NCBI GenBank assembly: GCA_019448385.1
Contig: JAGTXO010000039.1
Span: forward strand, 62,001 to 126,000
From: Diacronema lutheri
Lineage: Eukaryota; Haptophyta; Pavlovophyceae; Pavlovales; Pavlovaceae
Direction: 5' to 3'
DNA: 64,000 bases
This document shows positions 19,457 to 27,625 of the stretch, piece by piece (the first letter of the stretch is position 1; the number at the start of each line of letters is the position of its first letter). The notes beneath the pieces were generated by a model. That model was not told the DNA's origin. It saw only the letters and a program-made list of their open reading frames with translations, and did no database searches. Both the position numbers and the translations under genes were made by a program.

Positions 19457-21327
19457 CTAGGCGTTCAGGTACGCCGTGATGTCAACACTCACGTCGTCGG
19501 GCGCCCTGTTTCCGTCCAGGACACGCGCGCCCGGGTACGCGGCGAGGATGACGGCCTCGTTCTCGTGGAATGCGGCGATGCGCTTGGAGAACTTCTCCTC
19601 GGTGTCGTCCTCGCGCGTAATCAGCCGCGCCTCGATCGCCGCCTTGTCGTCGTCGTCGGGCACGGGGTTCATCTCGATGTGGTAGATTTTACCCGTCTCC
19701 GGGTCCATGCGCCGGCCAAGCACGCGCTTCAGCAGCACGTCGTCGGGCACCTGCAGCATGATCACCTGCAGCGCGAGCGGCGCGCGCGCGGAGCGCGCGC
19801 GTGGTTGAGATCATCAAGGTAGCCGTCAAGCGAGAACTTACGTGCACAGGCGCGCAGGCCGCGGGCCGCTCGGCGCGCGCCTTGTTCGGCACGATGAACA
19901 TGCGCTCCATCGCCTTGACCTGCCCGCCTGTCCTCGGGAAGCCATCGAGCAGCCAGCCGTTTTCCTTCGCCTGCACGGGCGAAGCAGGCGCGCGCGCCAC
20001 GGCGCGTCACACGAACAGCCCGCGCAGCCTGCAGCGCGGCGCACGCGCACGCGCTCACCTCGGGCTTTTCGAGCTCCTGCTTGAGGAGGCCGCAGATGAG
20101 CTCGTCGGGCACGAGCTCGCCCGCCTCCATCTTCTCCTTGGCCTTTTGCCCGATCTCGTTCTCTTCGTCCGCCGCCGCCGCGCGCAGCATGTCGCCAGTG
20201 GAGATGTGGTGGCAGCCGTAGTGCGCTTTGATCAGCTCGCACTGTGTGCCCTTCCCGCCGGCTGGCGGGCCGGCGATGACGATTTTGGGCTTGGGCTTGA
20301 CGATGCAAAGCGTCGCGCGCAGCACTTCGTCCGTCGCCGTGCCCACCGTCGAGAGCGCGCCGCCCTGCCAGTGGTAGGCGAGCCGTGCGCCCTCGTCTTC
20401 GGGGTCGGCGTCGTCCGGCAGCTTGCCGACAAAGACGCCCTCTGCGACGACGCCGTTCGAGAGGGCCCACGCGCCCTTGCCGTCGGCTGCGCCCTTTTTG
20501 AACGTGCCGTAGTACGCCGAGCCGTCCGCCGTCAGCGCCTTGCCCGCGAGCAGCTGCCCGTCGCCGAATGAGGCCTCAAACTTGGTCTCAGCGCCGACCG
20601 CACGGTACACACCTGTGCCCTCCTTCACACCGTTGAAGAAATGGCCGACGTACCGGTCGCCGTTGGCGTAAACAAAGGTGCCCTTGCCGTGGCGCTTGCC
20701 GAACGCCCATGCGCCCTCGTAAATCGAACCGTCCGCGTACGCCATCGTGCCGTGCCCGTGGCGCAGACCGCCCTTCCATGCGCCGACGTACAGCCCTGTT
20801 TTGGGATAGAGCATCGCGCCACTGCCGGCGCGCTCGTTCCCCTCAAAGTAGCCGGCGTAGACCGCGCCGCCCGGCGCGAGATTCACGCCGTACCCCGAGC
20901 GCGCCGTCACCATCGCGTCAAAGGGCACGTCCGCATCGGCTGGGCGCGGCGCGCGCCCGCCCGCGTACACGCCCAGCCGCACAACCTTCGCGACGGTGAA
21001 TTTGTGCGGCGTGCGCTCGCCGAAAATCTCGTCCGCAGTCTCTCCCTGCCACTCCTCGTCGGCGAAGTCGACAGGCTCGTCTTCTTCCTCCTCCTCCTCC
21101 GCCTCTGCCTCCGGCTCGTCCTCGCCCTCCTCGCCCTCGTCGCGCGGCGGCTTTTGCTTGTTCCACGGGAACTTGCCCTTGCGCGTCGACTGCATCTTGG
21201 CCCAAACGGCGTGCGCTTTATCGTCGACGCCCCACGCGTCGGCCTGCACAATGTGTGCCGCGACCGCCTCGTGTTCCAGCGCGTCGACCGCCCCTCGCAA
21301 CGCAGCGACCAGGTCTACCTGCTCCAT
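19457..21327 (-). CDS. Adenylate kinase with N-terminal MORN repeats
   Basis: Exons 21327-20059, 19970-19842 and 19765-19457 give 568 aa; both introns are GT-AG, the second with donor 'gtaagt'. The N-terminal 95 residues end in a Glu-rich block. About seven MORN-like repeats follow ('YVGAWKGGLRHGHGTMAYAD', 'YEGAWAFGKRHGKGTF'). The last 220 residues are an adenylate kinase: P-loop GPPAGGKGTQ, 'HHISTGDMLR', 'GWLLDGFPRT', LID with 'RMDPETGKIYH'. It interconverts ATP, ADP and AMP. The MORN segment would tether the enzyme to membrane or cytoskeleton, as in flagellar adenylate kinases, giving local ATP buffering. It is divergent from fibrillarin. Confidence 0.9.
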
Positions 21328-21658: not shown

Positions 21659-22991
21659 ATGGGAGCGGACTTTCGGGGGGGCGGCCGCGGCGGCGGCGGT
21701 CGCGGCGGCGGGCGAGGCCCACCCGGACGCGGCGGTGGTGGGCGCGGTGGTGGGCGTGATGGCGGTCGGGGTTTTGCCGGAGGCCGCGGCGGAGGCCGTG
21801 ACGGCGGCCGCGGACGAGGGCGCGGTGGTGGGCGCGACGGCGGTCGCGGTCGCGGTGGCGGCCGCGGCGGCGGGCGCGGTGGCGGCATGAAGGGCGGCAA
21901 GAAGGTCATCATCGAGCCTCACCGCTTCGCGGGCATCTTCATCGCGCGTGGCAACGACGCCGCGCTCATCACGAAGAACATGGTGCCGGGAGAGGCCGTC
22001 TATGGGGAGAAGCGCATCACCGTCGAGGTGCGGCCGGCGCGGCCCAAAATCGCGCCGCCGCCCCCCGATGCGCGCCGCGCGTACCGTGCGCGTCGCCCAT
22101 GATTGCCGCGCCCCCGCCGTCGGGCCGCGTGCGCCGCCGTCGTGCAGGAGAACGAAGTCAAGGTCGAGTACCGCGTGTGGAACCCGTTCCGCTCAAAGCT
22201 CGCGGCCGCGGTGCTTGGCGGCGTGGACAACATTTGGATCAAGCCGGGCGCAAAGGTGCGCCGCGTCGCTTCGCGCTCGCACCAGCGTGGCACCGCAGGG
22301 CATATGCACGCCCGTTCGGCGCGAGGGTGCGCGCCCCCTAGCGTATCGACCGGCCCGACCGTGACCGGCGGCCGCGGCGCGCGCAGGTCCTCTACCTCGG
22401 CGCAGCGTCCGGCACGTCCGTGTCGCACGTGGCGGACATTGTGGGCGACGAGGGCACCGTCTACGCCGTCGAGTTCTCGCACCGCCCCGGCCGCGACCTG
22501 ATCAACATGGCGAAGAAGCGGACAAACGTGATCCCGATTATCGAGGACGCGCGCCACCCGCTCAAGTACCGGATGCTCATCGGGATGGTGGACGTGATCT
22601 TCGCCGACGTGGCACAGCCCGACCAGGCGCGCATCGTCGGGCTCAACGCGCACCTCTTCCTCAAGAATGAGGGCCACTGCGTGATCTCGATCAAGGCGAA
22701 CTGCATCGATTCGACCGCCGCGCCGGAGGCCGTCTTCGCGAAGGAAGTGAAGAAATTGAAAGACGAGCACTTCAAGCCGCTCGAGCAGATCACGCTCGAG
22801 CCGTACGAGCGCGACCACGCCGTCGTACGCGCACGCCGCGCACGCGCGGCCGGTGCTGGCGGGGGGGGCAAGGGGGGGGGGGATCATGGATGCACACGTG
22901 CGAGTGCTTACGGTCCGGCCCACCCCTGCGCTCCGCCCGCCCTTTCGCGCAGGTCATCGCGCAATATCGCGCGGCGAAGAAGGCCAAGTGA
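21659..22991 (+). CDS. FBL: Fibrillarin, rRNA 2'-O-methyltransferase
   Basis: Exons 21659-22027, 22148-22255, 22387-22824 and 22953-22991 give 317 aa with GT-AG introns of 120 to 131 bp. The N-terminus is a long GAR domain of Gly/Arg repeats (21670-21890). The methyltransferase part has '[20 protein letters not shown]' across exon 2/3, the SAM site '[15 protein letters not shown]', '[12 protein letters not shown]' and 'PYERDHAV'. It is the catalytic subunit of C/D-box snoRNPs in the nucleolus. The last exon encodes only 12 residues ('[12 protein letters not shown]'), a divergent tail compared with the usual GVYRPP ending. The intron before it contains G-runs. Confidence 0.95.
22861..22881 (+). 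repeat. Two G-runs in the last fibrillarin intron
   Basis: Two G-runs separated by 'caa' lie about 70 bp before the final acceptor. Confidence 0.8.
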
Positions 22992-23245
22992 GCCTAAGCG
23001 GGCGTGCGCGAAGGAGGGAAAAATGTAGCAGAAGGCGAGCGGGGGCGCTTACGACGTGCGCGTGCCGCCCGTGCACGCACAGTGAACGTGACGCCCGCCC
23101 GGCGTGTGCGCCAAAAAGCGTGAGCGACTCGCGCGCACTCTGTGCGCGCAGAGAGAAATGACAGTTGGACACGTCCGACAGGAAGAAAGATGTGCCCTTT
23201 CACTCGGGCGGCCGCCGGGCACCTGACGCTCAACTGTCCTGTCAC

Positions 23246-26200
23246 TCAGAAACATCTGCCTCTTCTTCGCCTCAAAAATTCCAGGGCGAGCTCGAGACGC
23301 GGCTTGGAGAGCCAGGCCCTCTGGACGGCCGAAATGCCCTCGTCGCCGATGTTGGTGACGCTGAGGTTGAGCGTGGTCAGGGACGCATTGACCTTGAGGG
23401 CTTCGCCGAGGCCAATCGCGCCCTCGTCACCGATGTTGGTGCTGCTGAGGTTGAGCATGGTCAGCGATGCGTTGACCTTGAGGGCCTCGCCGAGGCCAAT
23501 CGCGCCCTTGTCGCCGATGTTGGTGTTGCTGCTAAGGCTGAGCGTGGTCAACGACGCGTTGATCTTGAGAGCCTCGCTGAGGCCGATTGCGCCCTCGTCG
23601 CCGATGTTGGTGTTGCAGCTGAGGATGAGCGCGGTCAGCGACGCATTGACCTTGAGGGCCTCGCCGAGGCCAATCGCGCCCTTGTCGCCGATGTTGGTGT
23701 TGCTGCTAAGGTTGAGCGTGGTCAACGACGCGTTGATCTTGAGAGCCTCGCTGAGGCCGATTGCGCCCTCGTCGCCGATGTTGGTGTTGCAGCTGAGGAT
23801 GAGCGCGGTCAGCGACGCATTGACCTTGAGGGCCTCGCCGAGGCCAATCGCGCCCTTGTCGCCGATGTTGGTGTTGCTGCTAAGGTTGAGCGTGGTCAAC
23901 GACGCGTTGATCTTGAGAGCCTCGCTGAGGCCGATTGCGCCCTCGTCGCCGATGTTGGTGTTGCAGCTGAGGATGAGCGCGGTCAGCGACGCATTGACCT
24001 TGAGGGCCTCGCCGAGGCCAATCGCGCCCTTGTCGCCGATGTTGGTGCTGCTGAGGTTGAGCGTGGTCAGCGACGCGTTGACCTTGAGGGCCTCGCCGAG
24101 GCCAATCGCGCCCTCGTCGCCGATGTTGGTGCTGCTGCTAAGGTTGAGCGTGGTCAGCGACGCGTTGACCTTGAGGGCCTCGCCGAGGCCAATCGCGCCT
24201 TTGTCGCCGATGTTGGTGCTGCTGAGGTTCAGCGCGGTCAGCGACGCGTTGACCCTGAGGACCTCGCCGAGGCCAATCGCGCCCCTGTCGCCGATGTTGG
24301 TGCTGCTGAGGTTCAGCGCGGTCAGCGATGCGTTGACCCTGAGGGCCTCGCCGAGGCCAATCGCGCCCCTGTCGCCGATGTATTTGCTGCTGAGGTTGAG
24401 CGTGGTCAGCGACGCGTTGACCTTGAGGGCCTCGCCGAGGCCAATCGCGCCCTCGTCGCCGATGTTGGTGCTGCTGCTAAGGTTGAGCGTGGTCAGCGAC
24501 GCGTTGACCTTGAGGGCCTCGCCGAGGCCAATCGCGCCTTTGTCGCCGATGTTGGTGCTGCTGAGGTTCAGCGCGGTCAGCGACGCGTTGACCCTGAGGA
24601 CCTCGCCGAGGCCAATCGCGCCCCTGTCGCCGATGTTGGTGCTGCTGAGGTTCAGCGCGGTCAGCGATGCGTTGACCCTGAGGGCCTCGCCGAGGCCAAT
24701 CGCGCCCTCGTCGCCGATGCGGGTGTAGCTGAGGTCGAGCGTGGTCAGCGACGCGTTGACCTTGAGCATGTTGGCGAGCGTGAAGGCTGCCGCGTCCGTG
24801 AGTCCAGTGTCACTGAGCCCGAGCGTGGCGAGGTGCGGGCTCACGCCGAGCAGCGGCGCAAGGCCGAGCACTGCCGTGTCCGGCAGCCCATGGCTGTCCA
24901 GGTGCAGAGCGCTGTCTTCCCAAGTCAGGCACGACGCCCCCTCTGCTTGCTCGCCCTCGTGCGCATGCGCGTCGGCGCCAAACGGCGCGAGCGCGCAGCG
25001 CAGCTTGCCCACGGCCCATGCTCGGTCGTCCGCGCACGCGTCGCCCGCGGCCAGCTGCACGAGGCGGCCGACCGCCAACCAGTGGCTCGCAACCTGCACG
25101 TCGAGCGCGCCTTCAGCCACCGGCCCGGCGAGCCCCCAGCTGAGCTCGGCCGCCGCGCGCGCCGCGCGCTGCCCAGTCTGCGCGTGCTGCGCGCGCTCGG
25201 CGCTGCACAGCTCGAGCTCGCCGCCGAGCGCGAGCGCGCCATGCGCGGCCTGCAGGCCGTGCAGCTCGGGCAGGTTGGTCATGCACATGCGCACGACCGA
25301 TGAGGCAACGCGCTTCGCGTCGCATCGCATCGCGACGTTCAGGCCGCCGCACCCATTTTCGAGCACGTCCCACCAAAACCAGCTCTCGTTGTGTGGTCCA
25401 AACATGGCGTCGAGCAGCTCCGAGCAGCCGCGCGCGATGCGCTCAAACGCCTCGTCCGCGTGCGCGCTCAGCGCTCGGAGTACGCCGGCCGCATATGCCT
25501 CGAAGCGCGCCAGGCGGAAGGAGCGGCCCTCGTCGTAGAGCAGACGCGCGAGCGACGATCCAAACGCGGTGCGCATGTCCGCCACGCCGTCGTCGACGAT
25601 CGAACGCAGCAGCTGCGCCTGCTCGCGCGCAAGCAGCCGCGCCGCGCTCGCGTCGCAGCCGGCGCGCAGCGCGCCGCCGTCGGGCGCGCACGCGCGCTGC
25701 AGCGCATTGAGCAGCGGCGCAAGCGCGTTGCGCACACACGCGTCGACAATCCCAGCATATCCGCACTCGAGCAGCGCGTCCACCTCGGCGCGCGCCTGCG
25801 CGTCCGTCGGCTCGCTCGGCGCGCCGAGCTGCACGCGCGCGACATCCGCCGCTTGCACGAGGTCGTCGAGCCTGCGCAGTGTGTCCGGAAGCCATTGCTC
25901 CTCGAGGGTCTTGACGTACATGCACTCGAGGCGGTCGACGAGCGCGTCGCATGTCGCGCTGCCCTCGCGCGCGAGCTCGCGCAGCACGTCGTTCGAGTCG
26001 AAGTGCGCGCGCTCGGCGCGAGCGGTGCGCAGCAGCCGCGCCAGCCCGACGCACCCGCCGCCGGCAATCGCGTCGCCACCGCCGCCACCGCCGTCGCCGT
26101 CGGCGTCGTCGAGCGGATCGACGTTGGCGACGGCGACCCAGCCGTGTGGCGCGAGCGGCGCGATGCCGAGCTCGTCGATCTGCGCCTCGCTGTGCTCGCG

Positions 26201-27205
26201 CGCGAGGACGGCGCGCAGGTGCGCGCAGTCACGCGGCTTGTCGACGCGGTCGCAGTACGTGAGCACGCCAACCGTCCGGCGCTGAGCCGCCTCGCACCCG
26301 TCGAGGCAGCTCAGCCCGCCCGCCTCGGCGGTGCGGCAGGTGGGGCCCCAACGATGCACGAGCAAGAACATGTCGGACGGTCTGCTGTTCCGCACGTACT
26401 CGTGTACGATCTTCTCGGTGCGCGCGCGAGCGTCGGCGGTGCGCTGCTGGATGCCGGGAAGGTCCACCAGCTCGATGGACGGCACGCGCGAGTGGTAGAC
26501 GGTGAGCATGATCGTCTTGTCGGCGCGCACGCGATGCTCGCACTCGGCAAGCAGCGCGCTCATCTGCTCCTGCACGCGCTCCCACCCCTGCTCAATCGCG
26601 ATGATCGGCCCTGCGTCGGCCGGCTCGCACCCAGAATCGAACGCCGTCAGCCGCGCGTGCGACTCGCCCGGCGCGCACCTGCGGAGGCGCAGGTGGATGG
26701 GCACGCGCGTGCACAGCCGCGCCGAGCGCGGAAAGAGCGGCATCATCGCGAGCCGCTCGAGCACCGTGCTCTTGCCCGTGCTCTCCGCGCCAATCACGAT
26801 GATGCGCGGCGGCGAGAGGCCCTTGAGGATGTCATCGAGCTTGGCGCGAAGCCCGTCGAGGCAGCGGAAATGCGCGGAGCCCAAATCGGTGATGTCGCGC
26901 GCCGGCGCGGCCAAGCGCGGCGATGCGCGCGCACCACCACCGCGCAGCGCCAGATGCAGCTCGCGCAGCACGTCCGGCGCGTCCTCGACGGCGGCCAGAT
27001 CGCCGTCGATTGGCGGCGCGCTCGCACCCGCGCCGCGCGCGCACGTGTCGTCTCGCAGGCGGTCGATGGCGGCGCTTTCGTACACGGCGGAACTTGTGGC
27101 CACGCGCACCGGGTGCTGCACCAACTCGAAGGATAGCGGGCACGTAAACCGCACGCGCTCGTCGTCGCCGAGCTCCGCGAGCTCGAGGTCGAGGTTAGAA
27201 GCCAT
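23246..27205 (-). CDS. U-box / dynamin-like GTPase / leucine-rich-repeat protein
   Basis: Intronless, 1319 aa. Residues about 18-60 read 'FTCPLSFELVQHPV' then 'VYESAAIDRL', a U-box pattern, so a ubiquitin-ligase role is possible. Residues 130-400 are a dynamin-family GTPase: P-loop GAESTGKST (139-147), 'RLCTRVP' (G2), DLPG (248-251), 'TYCDRVD' (G4, 316-322). A helical middle domain of about 400 residues follows. From about residue 800 come ribonuclease-inhibitor-type LRRs of 28 or 29 residues; 17 units share NASLTxLxLS and IGDxGAIGLGEALKV. Such LRRs occur in NLR and NLRC3-like sensors. The combination resembles an immune GTPase with its own sensor and ligase, but no function is shown. The repeats are nearly identical at DNA level. 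Confidence 0.8.
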   Translation of the reverse strand: MASNLDLELAELGDDERVRFTCPLSFELVQHPVRVATSSAVYESAAIDRLRDDTCARGAGASAPPIDGDLAAVEDAPDVLRELHLALRGGGARASPRLAAPARDITDLGSAHFRCLDGLRAKLDDILKGLSPPRIIVIGAESTGKSTVLERLAMMPLFPRSARLCTRVPIHLRLRRCAPGESHARLTAFDSGCEPADAGPIIAIEQGWERVQEQMSALLAECEHRVRADKTIMLTVYHSRVPSIELVDLPGIQQRTADARARTEKIVHEYVRNSRPSDMFLLVHRWGPTCRTAEAGGLSCLDGCEAAQRRTVGVLTYCDRVDKPRDCAHLRAVLAREHSEAQIDELGIAPLAPHGWVAVANVDPLDDADGDGGGGGGDAIAGGGCVGLARLLRTARAERAHFDSNDVLRELAREGSATCDALVDRLECMYVKTLEEQWLPDTLRRLDDLVQAADVARVQLGAPSEPTDAQARAEVDALLECGYAGIVDACVRNALAPLLNALQRACAPDGGALRAGCDASAARLLAREQAQLLRSIVDDGVADMRTAFGSSLARLLYDEGRSFRLARFEAYAAGVLRALSAHADEAFERIARGCSELLDAMFGPHNESWFWWDVLENGCGGLNVAMRCDAKRVASSVVRMCMTNLPELHGLQAAHGALALGGELELCSAERAQHAQTGQRAARAAAELSWGLAGPVAEGALDVQVASHWLAVGRLVQLAAGDACADDRAWAVGKLRCALAPFGADAHAHEGEQAEGASCLTWEDSALHLDSHGLPDTAVLGLAPLLGVSPHLATLGLSDTGLTDAAAFTLANMLKVNASLTTLDLSYTRIGDEGAIGLGEALRVNASLTALNLSSTNIGDRGAIGLGEVLRVNASLTALNLSSTNIGDKGAIGLGEALKVNASLTTLNLSSSTNIGDEGAIGLGEALKVNASLTTLNLSSKYIGDRGAIGLGEALRVNASLTALNLSSTNIGDRGAIGLGEVLRVNASLTALNLSSTNIGDKGAIGLGEALKVNASLTTLNLSSSTNIGDEGAIGLGEALKVNASLTTLNLSSTNIGDKGAIGLGEALKVNASLTALILSCNTNIGDEGAIGLSEALKINASLTTLNLSSNTNIGDKGAIGLGEALKVNASLTALILSCNTNIGDEGAIGLSEALKINASLTTLNLSSNTNIGDKGAIGLGEALKVNASLTALILSCNTNIGDEGAIGLSEALKINASLTTLSLSSNTNIGDKGAIGLGEALKVNASLTMLNLSSTNIGDEGAIGLGEALKVNASLTTLNLSVTNIGDEGISAVQRAWLSKPRLELALEFLRRRRGRCF
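23290..24780 (-). repeat. LRR-coding tandem array with higher-order repeats
   Basis: About 17 units of 84 or 87 bp lie inside the gene. Two higher-order patterns are visible. A two-unit block of 174 bp occurs three times (register points 23561, 23735 and 23909). A four-unit block of 339 bp is duplicated (24125 and 24464) and is almost identical over about 235 bp. Confidence 0.9.

Positions 27206-27587: not shown

Positions 27588-27625
<38 letters not shown>

What the first reader, a model, noticed from the sequence alone, without database searches (positions are those of the whole stretch)
23246..27205. U-box + dynamin-like GTPase + NLR-type LRR in one protein
The single 1319-aa frame joins a U-box-like start, a dynamin-family GTPase with all four G motifs, and about 17 ribonuclease-inhibitor-type LRRs. 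U-box ligases, GBP/Mx-like GTPases and LRR sensors all act in cell-autonomous immunity elsewhere. I know of no described protein with this exact order. A sensor (LRR), a self-assembling GTPase and a ubiquitin ligase in one chain would be a complete defence module. The role is inference.
Basis: partly seen in the sequence, partly recalled or inferred. Interest (0 to 1): 0.85.

Follow-up and report, generated by a model that had tools for sequence, protein, structure and literature searches.

The report
Algal U-box, dynamin and LRR protein
A haptophyte alga has what looks like a single gene joining a divergent ubiquitin-ligase-like start, a dynamin-type GTPase and a long, recently duplicated leucine-rich-repeat array, and related repeat arrays in the same genome follow other signalling domains, so it may belong to a small set of immune-receptor-like proteins, but its function is untested.

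Summary
The observation largely holds. Window 23246-27205 (-) is one 1319-codon frame, the best of six in 22 of 22 sixty-codon bins. It has a dynamin GTPase (Pfam E 1.3e-17) and about 18 RI-type LRRs (LRR_6 E 1.6e-79). The U-box is below Pfam's cut-off (18.3 against 21.4 bits), but its first half is beyond chance: 26.7 bits with a model of six U-boxes of this genome, best of 20,000 shuffles 10.9. Its second half is degenerate; no fold was obtained. Corrections: G4 is TYCD, not TKxD; the P-loop Gln is Glu; no dynamin stalk or GED is recognisable. LRR blocks are homogenised (174 of 174 nt identical), unlike a diversified sensor. New: the three nearest LRR arrays in this genome lie behind other modules: MLKL-like helices plus kinase, EDR1/CTR1 plus kinase, and a marginal F-box. 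Best reading: an LRR-targeted, GTPase-controlled, E3-like switch in an NLR-like modular set. The immune role is inference. The genome fits Diacronema lutheri in size and contig number.

The parts
23246..27205 (-). single open frame, 1319 aa; the whole gene as far as it can be seen
   Evidence: in-frame TAG just before the ATG; best of six frames in 22 of 22 bins
26942..27151 (-). divergent U-box-like domain, about aa 19-88; first half (aa 19-50) significant, second half alignable but degenerate
26321..26803 (-). Dynamin_N GTPase match, aa 135-295
   Evidence: E 1.3e-17; best PDB match Mx1, E 4.6e-13
26768..26791 (-). G1 P-loop GAESTGKS (Glu where the C9 and C37 dynamins of this genome have Gln)
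26699..26713 (-). G2 threonine in CTRVP
26453..26464 (-). G3 DLPG
26249..26263 (-). G4 position LTYCD; the lysine of TKxD is missing
24971..26056 (-). middle region, about aa 384-745; where a dynamin stalk would lie, but no significant match; helical only in a low-confidence model
23297..24832 (-). 18 ribonuclease-inhibitor-type LRRs of 28-29 aa, about aa 792-1303
23336..24766 (-). 87-bp tandem repeat (16.8 copies, 88% matches) with a 339-bp higher-order unit, encoding the LRRs

Best explanation
One nuclear gene encodes a three-part protein. The C-terminal LRR solenoid binds a target; nucleotide binding by the dynamin-type GTPase controls assembly of copies on that target; the N-terminal U-box-like domain then recruits a ubiquitin-charged E2, so that the target or the complex itself is ubiquitylated. 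It most likely belongs to a small set of proteins of this alga in which one LRR subfamily serves different N-terminal output modules, arranged like NLR receptors but with a dynamin GTPase where NLRs have a NACHT or NB-ARC domain. Shown: one coding frame, the GTPase, the LRRs, the U-box-like first half, the shared LRR subfamily. Inferred: E2 recruitment, assembly, target binding, location in the cell, and any role in defence.
For: Single coding frame. Dynamin_N E 1.3e-17 and LRR_6 E 1.6e-79. U-box-like segment: 26.7 bits with a model of six U-boxes of this genome, best of 20,000 shuffles 10.9. Aligned with four U-box pieces from IMG/VR contigs the second half shares a loop proline with two of them and the proline of the P-N/P-D site with all four. 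The three nearest LRR arrays in the genome (66, 57 and 54% identity; the other 33 rows at most 44%; DNA 82, 74 and 74% over 669, 1027 and 708 nt) lie behind a kinase with MLKL_N-like helices, an EDR1/CTR1 domain plus kinase, and a marginal F-box.
Against: U-box below Pfam's cut-off and no confident AlphaFold2 model (mean pLDDT 37.7 and 43.1; the second had a U-box alignment and still showed no strands). G4 lysine and P-loop Gln are missing, so hydrolysis or GTP preference may be lost. No Dynamin_M or GED match, while other dynamins of this genome have them, so dynamin-type assembly has no support from sequence. LRR blocks are nearly identical, which speaks against selection for many ligands. 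In two of the three sister loci the link between the module and the LRRs needs unseen introns. No homologue with the same order was found in the viral and prokaryote collections at hand; no other haptophyte genome could be searched.
Confidence: 0.4

Rival explanations
1. The N-terminal segment is a remnant or a non-catalytic, U-box-like docking domain, and the protein is a GTPase-LRR scaffold or membrane-trafficking factor without ubiquitin ligase activity.
For: Only model positions 5-34 of 73 match; the second half is degenerate; no confident fold.
Against: The first half scores far above shuffles; a second model of zinc-finger MIZ type (zf-Nse, E 0.0052) also matches the segment; the second half can be aligned over its length.
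Confidence: 0.3
2. The LRR array is mostly a neutral or selfish minisatellite expansion on a dynamin-like protein; it has no specific ligand and its copy number drifts.
For: 87-bp tandem repeat at 88% matches; 174 of 174 nt identical between blocks aa 1074-1131 and 1132-1189, and 329 of 336 between aa 848-959 and 961-1072.
Against: Frame and LRR consensus are kept throughout with a strong coding signal; the LRR frames of the three nearest loci are open too. Mean dN 0.283 and dS 0.289 over 45 pairs of 28-aa units decide nothing, because fresh and old copies are mixed.
Confidence: 0.2
3. The three parts belong to separate genes or transcripts that happen to lie in one frame.
For: No transcript was available; long spurious frames are common in this GC-rich sequence.
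Against: The frame is the best of six in 22 of 22 bins, those between the domains included; 45% of coding sequences in the D. lutheri annotation are single-exon (PMC8379373, passage seen).
Confidence: 0.05

Closest known systems
Mx and other dynamin superfamily proteins
   Same: Dynamin_N GTPase; best solved matches Mx1 (E 4.6e-13), Mgm1 (2.7e-11) and Drp1 (3.6e-11). Mx-like dynamins are reported for haptophytes and MADS dynamins for D. lutheri (PMC11789081, passages seen); whether this protein is one of those is not known.
   Different: No recognisable stalk or GED, altered P-loop Gln and G4 Lys, extra U-box-like and LRR parts. The E-values are too close to assign a clade.
NLR receptors (NACHT or NB-ARC plus LRR)
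   Same: N-terminal module, nucleotide-binding domain, C-terminal ribonuclease-inhibitor-type LRRs; NLRP3, NLRP5 and NLRP14 chains are among the PDB matches to the LRRs, behind ribonuclease-inhibitor-like and ciliary LRR proteins.
   Different: The nucleotide-binding domain is a dynamin GTPase; no NACHT or NB-ARC match is listed.
LRR-ROC-COR (ROCO) proteins of brown algae
   Same: GTPase plus shuffled LRRs in an alga, proposed as candidate immune receptors (PMC11378527, abstract and outline seen).
   Different: The arrangement there is LRR-ROC-COR, with a ROC rather than a dynamin GTPase, and one LRR per exon; here the LRRs lie in one continuous frame. No U-box is mentioned in that abstract.
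U-box proteins such as plant PUB12
   Same: The stretch RFTCPLSFELVQHPV...YESAAI aligns to PUB12 and other U-box chains (E 0.03-0.18).
   Different: Below Pfam's cut-off, degenerate second half, and joined to a GTPase and LRRs.

Membership tests
U-box E3 ligases | U-box profile match over the curated cut-off | tested here: not met
   18.3 bits against cut-off 21.4, aa 20-50 only
U-box E3 ligases | U-box-like sequence beyond chance | tested here: met
   26.7 bits with a model of six own-genome U-boxes; best of 20,000 shuffles 10.9; first half only
U-box E3 ligases | U-box fold | tested here: inconclusive
   AlphaFold2 mean pLDDT 37.7 (aa 1-790, no alignment) and 43.1 (aa 1-100, five rows)
U-box E3 ligases | E2 binding and ubiquitylation | not testable with these tools
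   needs protein assays
Dynamin superfamily | Dynamin_N GTPase domain | tested here: met
   E 1.3e-17, 64.8 bits, cut-off 27
Dynamin superfamily | G1-G4 motifs all canonical | tested here: not met
   G4 LTYCD; P-loop GAES
Dynamin superfamily | stalk (Dynamin_M) and GED | tested here: not met
   neither listed up to E 10; C37 and C9 match Dynamin_M and C9 matches GED over cut-off; phmmer against C37 did no better than shuffles. A diverged stalk is not excluded.
Mx proteins | place in the Mx clade of a dynamin tree | not tested
   no set of named eukaryotic dynamins was at hand; Mx1 is only slightly ahead of Mgm1 and Drp1
NLR receptors | NACHT or NB-ARC domain | tested here: not met
   neither family is listed up to E 10
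RI-type LRR proteins | LRR_6-type repeats of 28-29 aa | tested here: met
   LRR_6 E 1.6e-79, 17 stretches; 18 units

The most novel reading that the evidence does not exclude
Haptophytes have an NLR-like receptor set built from one LRR subfamily joined to interchangeable output modules: U-box plus dynamin GTPase, MLKL-like four-helix plus kinase, EDR1/CTR1 plus kinase, and F-box. In the member studied here a dynamin GTPase takes the place of the NACHT or NB-ARC switch, giving a GTP-controlled, LRR-guided ubiquitin ligase.
Probability: 0.2. Interest if true: 0.85.

Novelty: new variant of a known kind. Interest (0 to 1): 0.6.

Why it matters
If it works as proposed, a dynamin GTPase can serve as the switch of an LRR receptor, and an algal lineage far from plants and animals assembled NLR-like proteins of its own, with ubiquitin-ligase and MLKL-like outputs. 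The four loci give a short, testable list of candidate immune receptors in a haptophyte that is used in aquaculture.

Tried and rejected
Led nowhere: scans of IMG/VR and of prokaryote genomes for relatives of aa 1-760, and of IMG/VR for the GTPase, for own dynamins and for two own U-boxes, confirmed no relative. These scans depend on a few short peptide patterns and can miss distant relatives. A scan with 200 aa of the LRRs gave two LRR loci, L065 and L066, in which aa 1-770 has no match at E up to 1. A U-box DNA pattern gave 13 loci, of which 4 hold a U-box-like ORF; two of the four (L052, L057) are identical over the piece used. AlphaFold2 failed twice, so no fold search was run. phmmer of the middle region against the C37 dynamin did no better than shuffles. 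The scan for bacterial promoters and terminators says nothing here.

Own U-box model: of 11 rows, eight became loci; six were used and two (L005, L007) were dropped because they are partial; three rows were not fetched. One search had one of eight training pieces (260 of 6188 codons) out of frame; one search repeats it in frame and adds a training set without LRR frames; 22 of 22 bins in both.

Rejected: assignment to the Mx clade (no tree with named references); 'all four G motifs'; separate genes. A second scan of prokaryote genomes, with a U-box, was left unused because it could bring in injected effectors of listed germs.

Literature: ten searches. No listed title or abstract start describes a U-box, dynamin and LRR protein, but most listings were capped (for example 20 of 39 and 10 of 295, with all three terms, listed 3 of 3). 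I saw passages of PMC11789081 and PMC8379373 and the abstract and outline of PMC11378527, no paper in full. Subscription papers are not held.
Full report
Source and frame. The window lies in a genome of 43,492,796 bases in 103 contigs. This fits Diacronema lutheri (43.503 Mb, 103 contigs, 45% of coding sequences single-exon; PMC8379373, passages seen), a pavlovophyte haptophyte; the identity is inferred from these numbers, not from a name. The frame 27205-23246 (-) is 1319 aa. An in-frame TAG stands directly before the ATG, and third-position G+C is 0.78-0.95 in every bin. Because overlapping frames are long too (712 aa on the other strand), I scored all six frames with codon usage from other frames of this genome. 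The frame is best in 22 of 22 bins with a training set of eight pieces, mostly LRR frames, and in 22 of 22 with five pieces without LRR frames; five flanking bins are negative in all three sense frames (one search was the same test with one training piece out of frame). Margins over an antisense frame are small in a few bins (0.40 against 0.36 at aa 661-720; 0.09 against 0.04 at aa 241-300 with the second set). One gene is very likely, but no transcript was available.

GTPase. Dynamin_N matches aa 135-295 at E 1.3e-17. Among solved structures the best matches are Mx1 (E 4.6e-13), Mgm1 (2.7e-11) and Drp1 (3.6e-11), so the clade is open. In this genome aa 1-760 matches only the C9 and C37 dynamins besides itself (E 2.0e-9 and 5.7e-6). 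Both of those have QSSGKSS and TKxD; the window protein has GAESTGKS and LTYCD. From memory, that P-loop glutamine helps dynamin hydrolysis and the G4 lysine packs on guanine, so activity may be lowered or lost (not tested). Dynamin_M and GED are not listed for the window protein up to E 10, while C37 and C9 match Dynamin_M and C9 matches GED over cut-off. A second Mx1 stretch at aa 394-468 has i-E 58 and is not evidence by itself, and phmmer of the region against the C37 dynamin did no better than shuffles.

U-box. Pfam gives 18.3 bits on aa 1-100 (cut-off 21.4), aa 20-50, and 13.6 bits on the whole protein. The U-box search of the genome gave 11 rows, none at this locus. PDB matches are U-box chains at E 0.03-0.18 and NSE2 at 0.29 and 0.42. 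A model built from six U-boxes of this genome scores 26.7 bits; the best of 20,000 shuffles scores 10.9. So the first half is truly U-box-like. Aligned with four U-box pieces from IMG/VR, two of which are identical, the second half shares a loop proline with L055 and L049, has P-D where they have P-N, and ends in a similar stretch; it is not significant by profile. AlphaFold2 gave mean pLDDT 37.7 (aa 1-790, single sequence) and 43.1 (aa 1-100, five rows). Even with a U-box alignment the second model shows helices only, which at that confidence decides nothing but does not help the U-box reading.

LRRs. Eighteen units of 28-29 aa were parsed; LRR_6 reports 17 stretches. The DNA is an 87-bp tandem repeat with a 339-bp higher-order unit. 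Blocks aa 1074-1131 and 1132-1189 are identical over 174 of 174 nt, and aa 848-959 and 961-1072 over 329 of 336: recent duplication or gene conversion. Among ten 28-aa units, the eight 29-aa units left out, mean dN is 0.283 and dS 0.289 over 45 pairs, too mixed in age to test selection. The array looks like a fast-changing copy-number locus rather than a set of diversified recognition units.

A shared LRR subfamily. A search of the genome with the whole protein gave 37 rows including itself (a lower bound). Three stand apart: C86 (66%), C69 (57%) and C70 (54%); the other 33 are at most 44%. At DNA level these three align at 82, 74 and 74% over 669, 1027 and 708 nt; four other loci align over 68-188 nt only. 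Their partners: at C86 a kinase (E 2.7e-37) after an MLKL_N-like region (E 1.7e-5 on 247 aa, 24.8 bits, cut-off 27); at C69 an EDR1/CTR1 domain (E 4.4e-29) and kinase (E 7.1e-42) in a frame that ends where the LRR part of another frame begins; at C70 an F-box at E 0.0024 (18.2 bits, cut-off 20.5) in one frame with the LRRs. The C69 kinase and LRRs are in different frames, and by eye the C86 frame shifts inside the kinase, so those two fusions rest on unseen introns. Of 14 further LRR frames scanned one has another domain over its cut-off (DnaJ, L015); many are cut by the ends of their loci, and the remaining rows were not scanned.

Reading. I take it as an LRR-guided, nucleotide-controlled, E3-like switch, arranged like an NLR but with a dynamin GTPase. 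Shown: frame, GTPase family, LRR class, U-box-like first half, shared LRR subfamily. Inferred: enzyme activity, assembly, target, immune role. The closest ideas in print that I saw are Mx-like and MADS dynamins in haptophytes (PMC11789081, passages) and LRR-ROCO candidate immune receptors of brown algae (PMC11378527, abstract and outline). No paper with this architecture appeared in the listings, most of them capped.

Noticed in passing
L045 1741-4140 (-), L064 1-2010 (-), L063 814-3240 (+): Three kinase frames with MLKL_N-like matches below the cut-off in this haptophyte genome: one with LRRs in the same frame, one with a weak Arm match. They may be MLKL-like cell-death kinases.
   Followed up: partly
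L044 3089-4999 (-): EDR1/CTR1 peptidase-like domain plus kinase directly upstream of an LRR frame of the window's LRR subfamily.
   Followed up: partly
L015 1-2946 (+): DnaJ domain (E 3.1e-13) followed by LRR_6 repeats in one frame.
   Followed up: no
19762-21327 (-): Frame that by eye looks like MORN repeats followed by an adenylate-kinase P-loop; not scanned.
   Followed up: no
22420-23028 (+): Fibrillarin-like frame by eye, convergent with the gene studied; not scanned.
   Followed up: no
27591-27624: Run of 34 G on the plus strand (C on the gene's strand) upstream of the gene, a spot where assembly or replication could slip.
   Followed up: no
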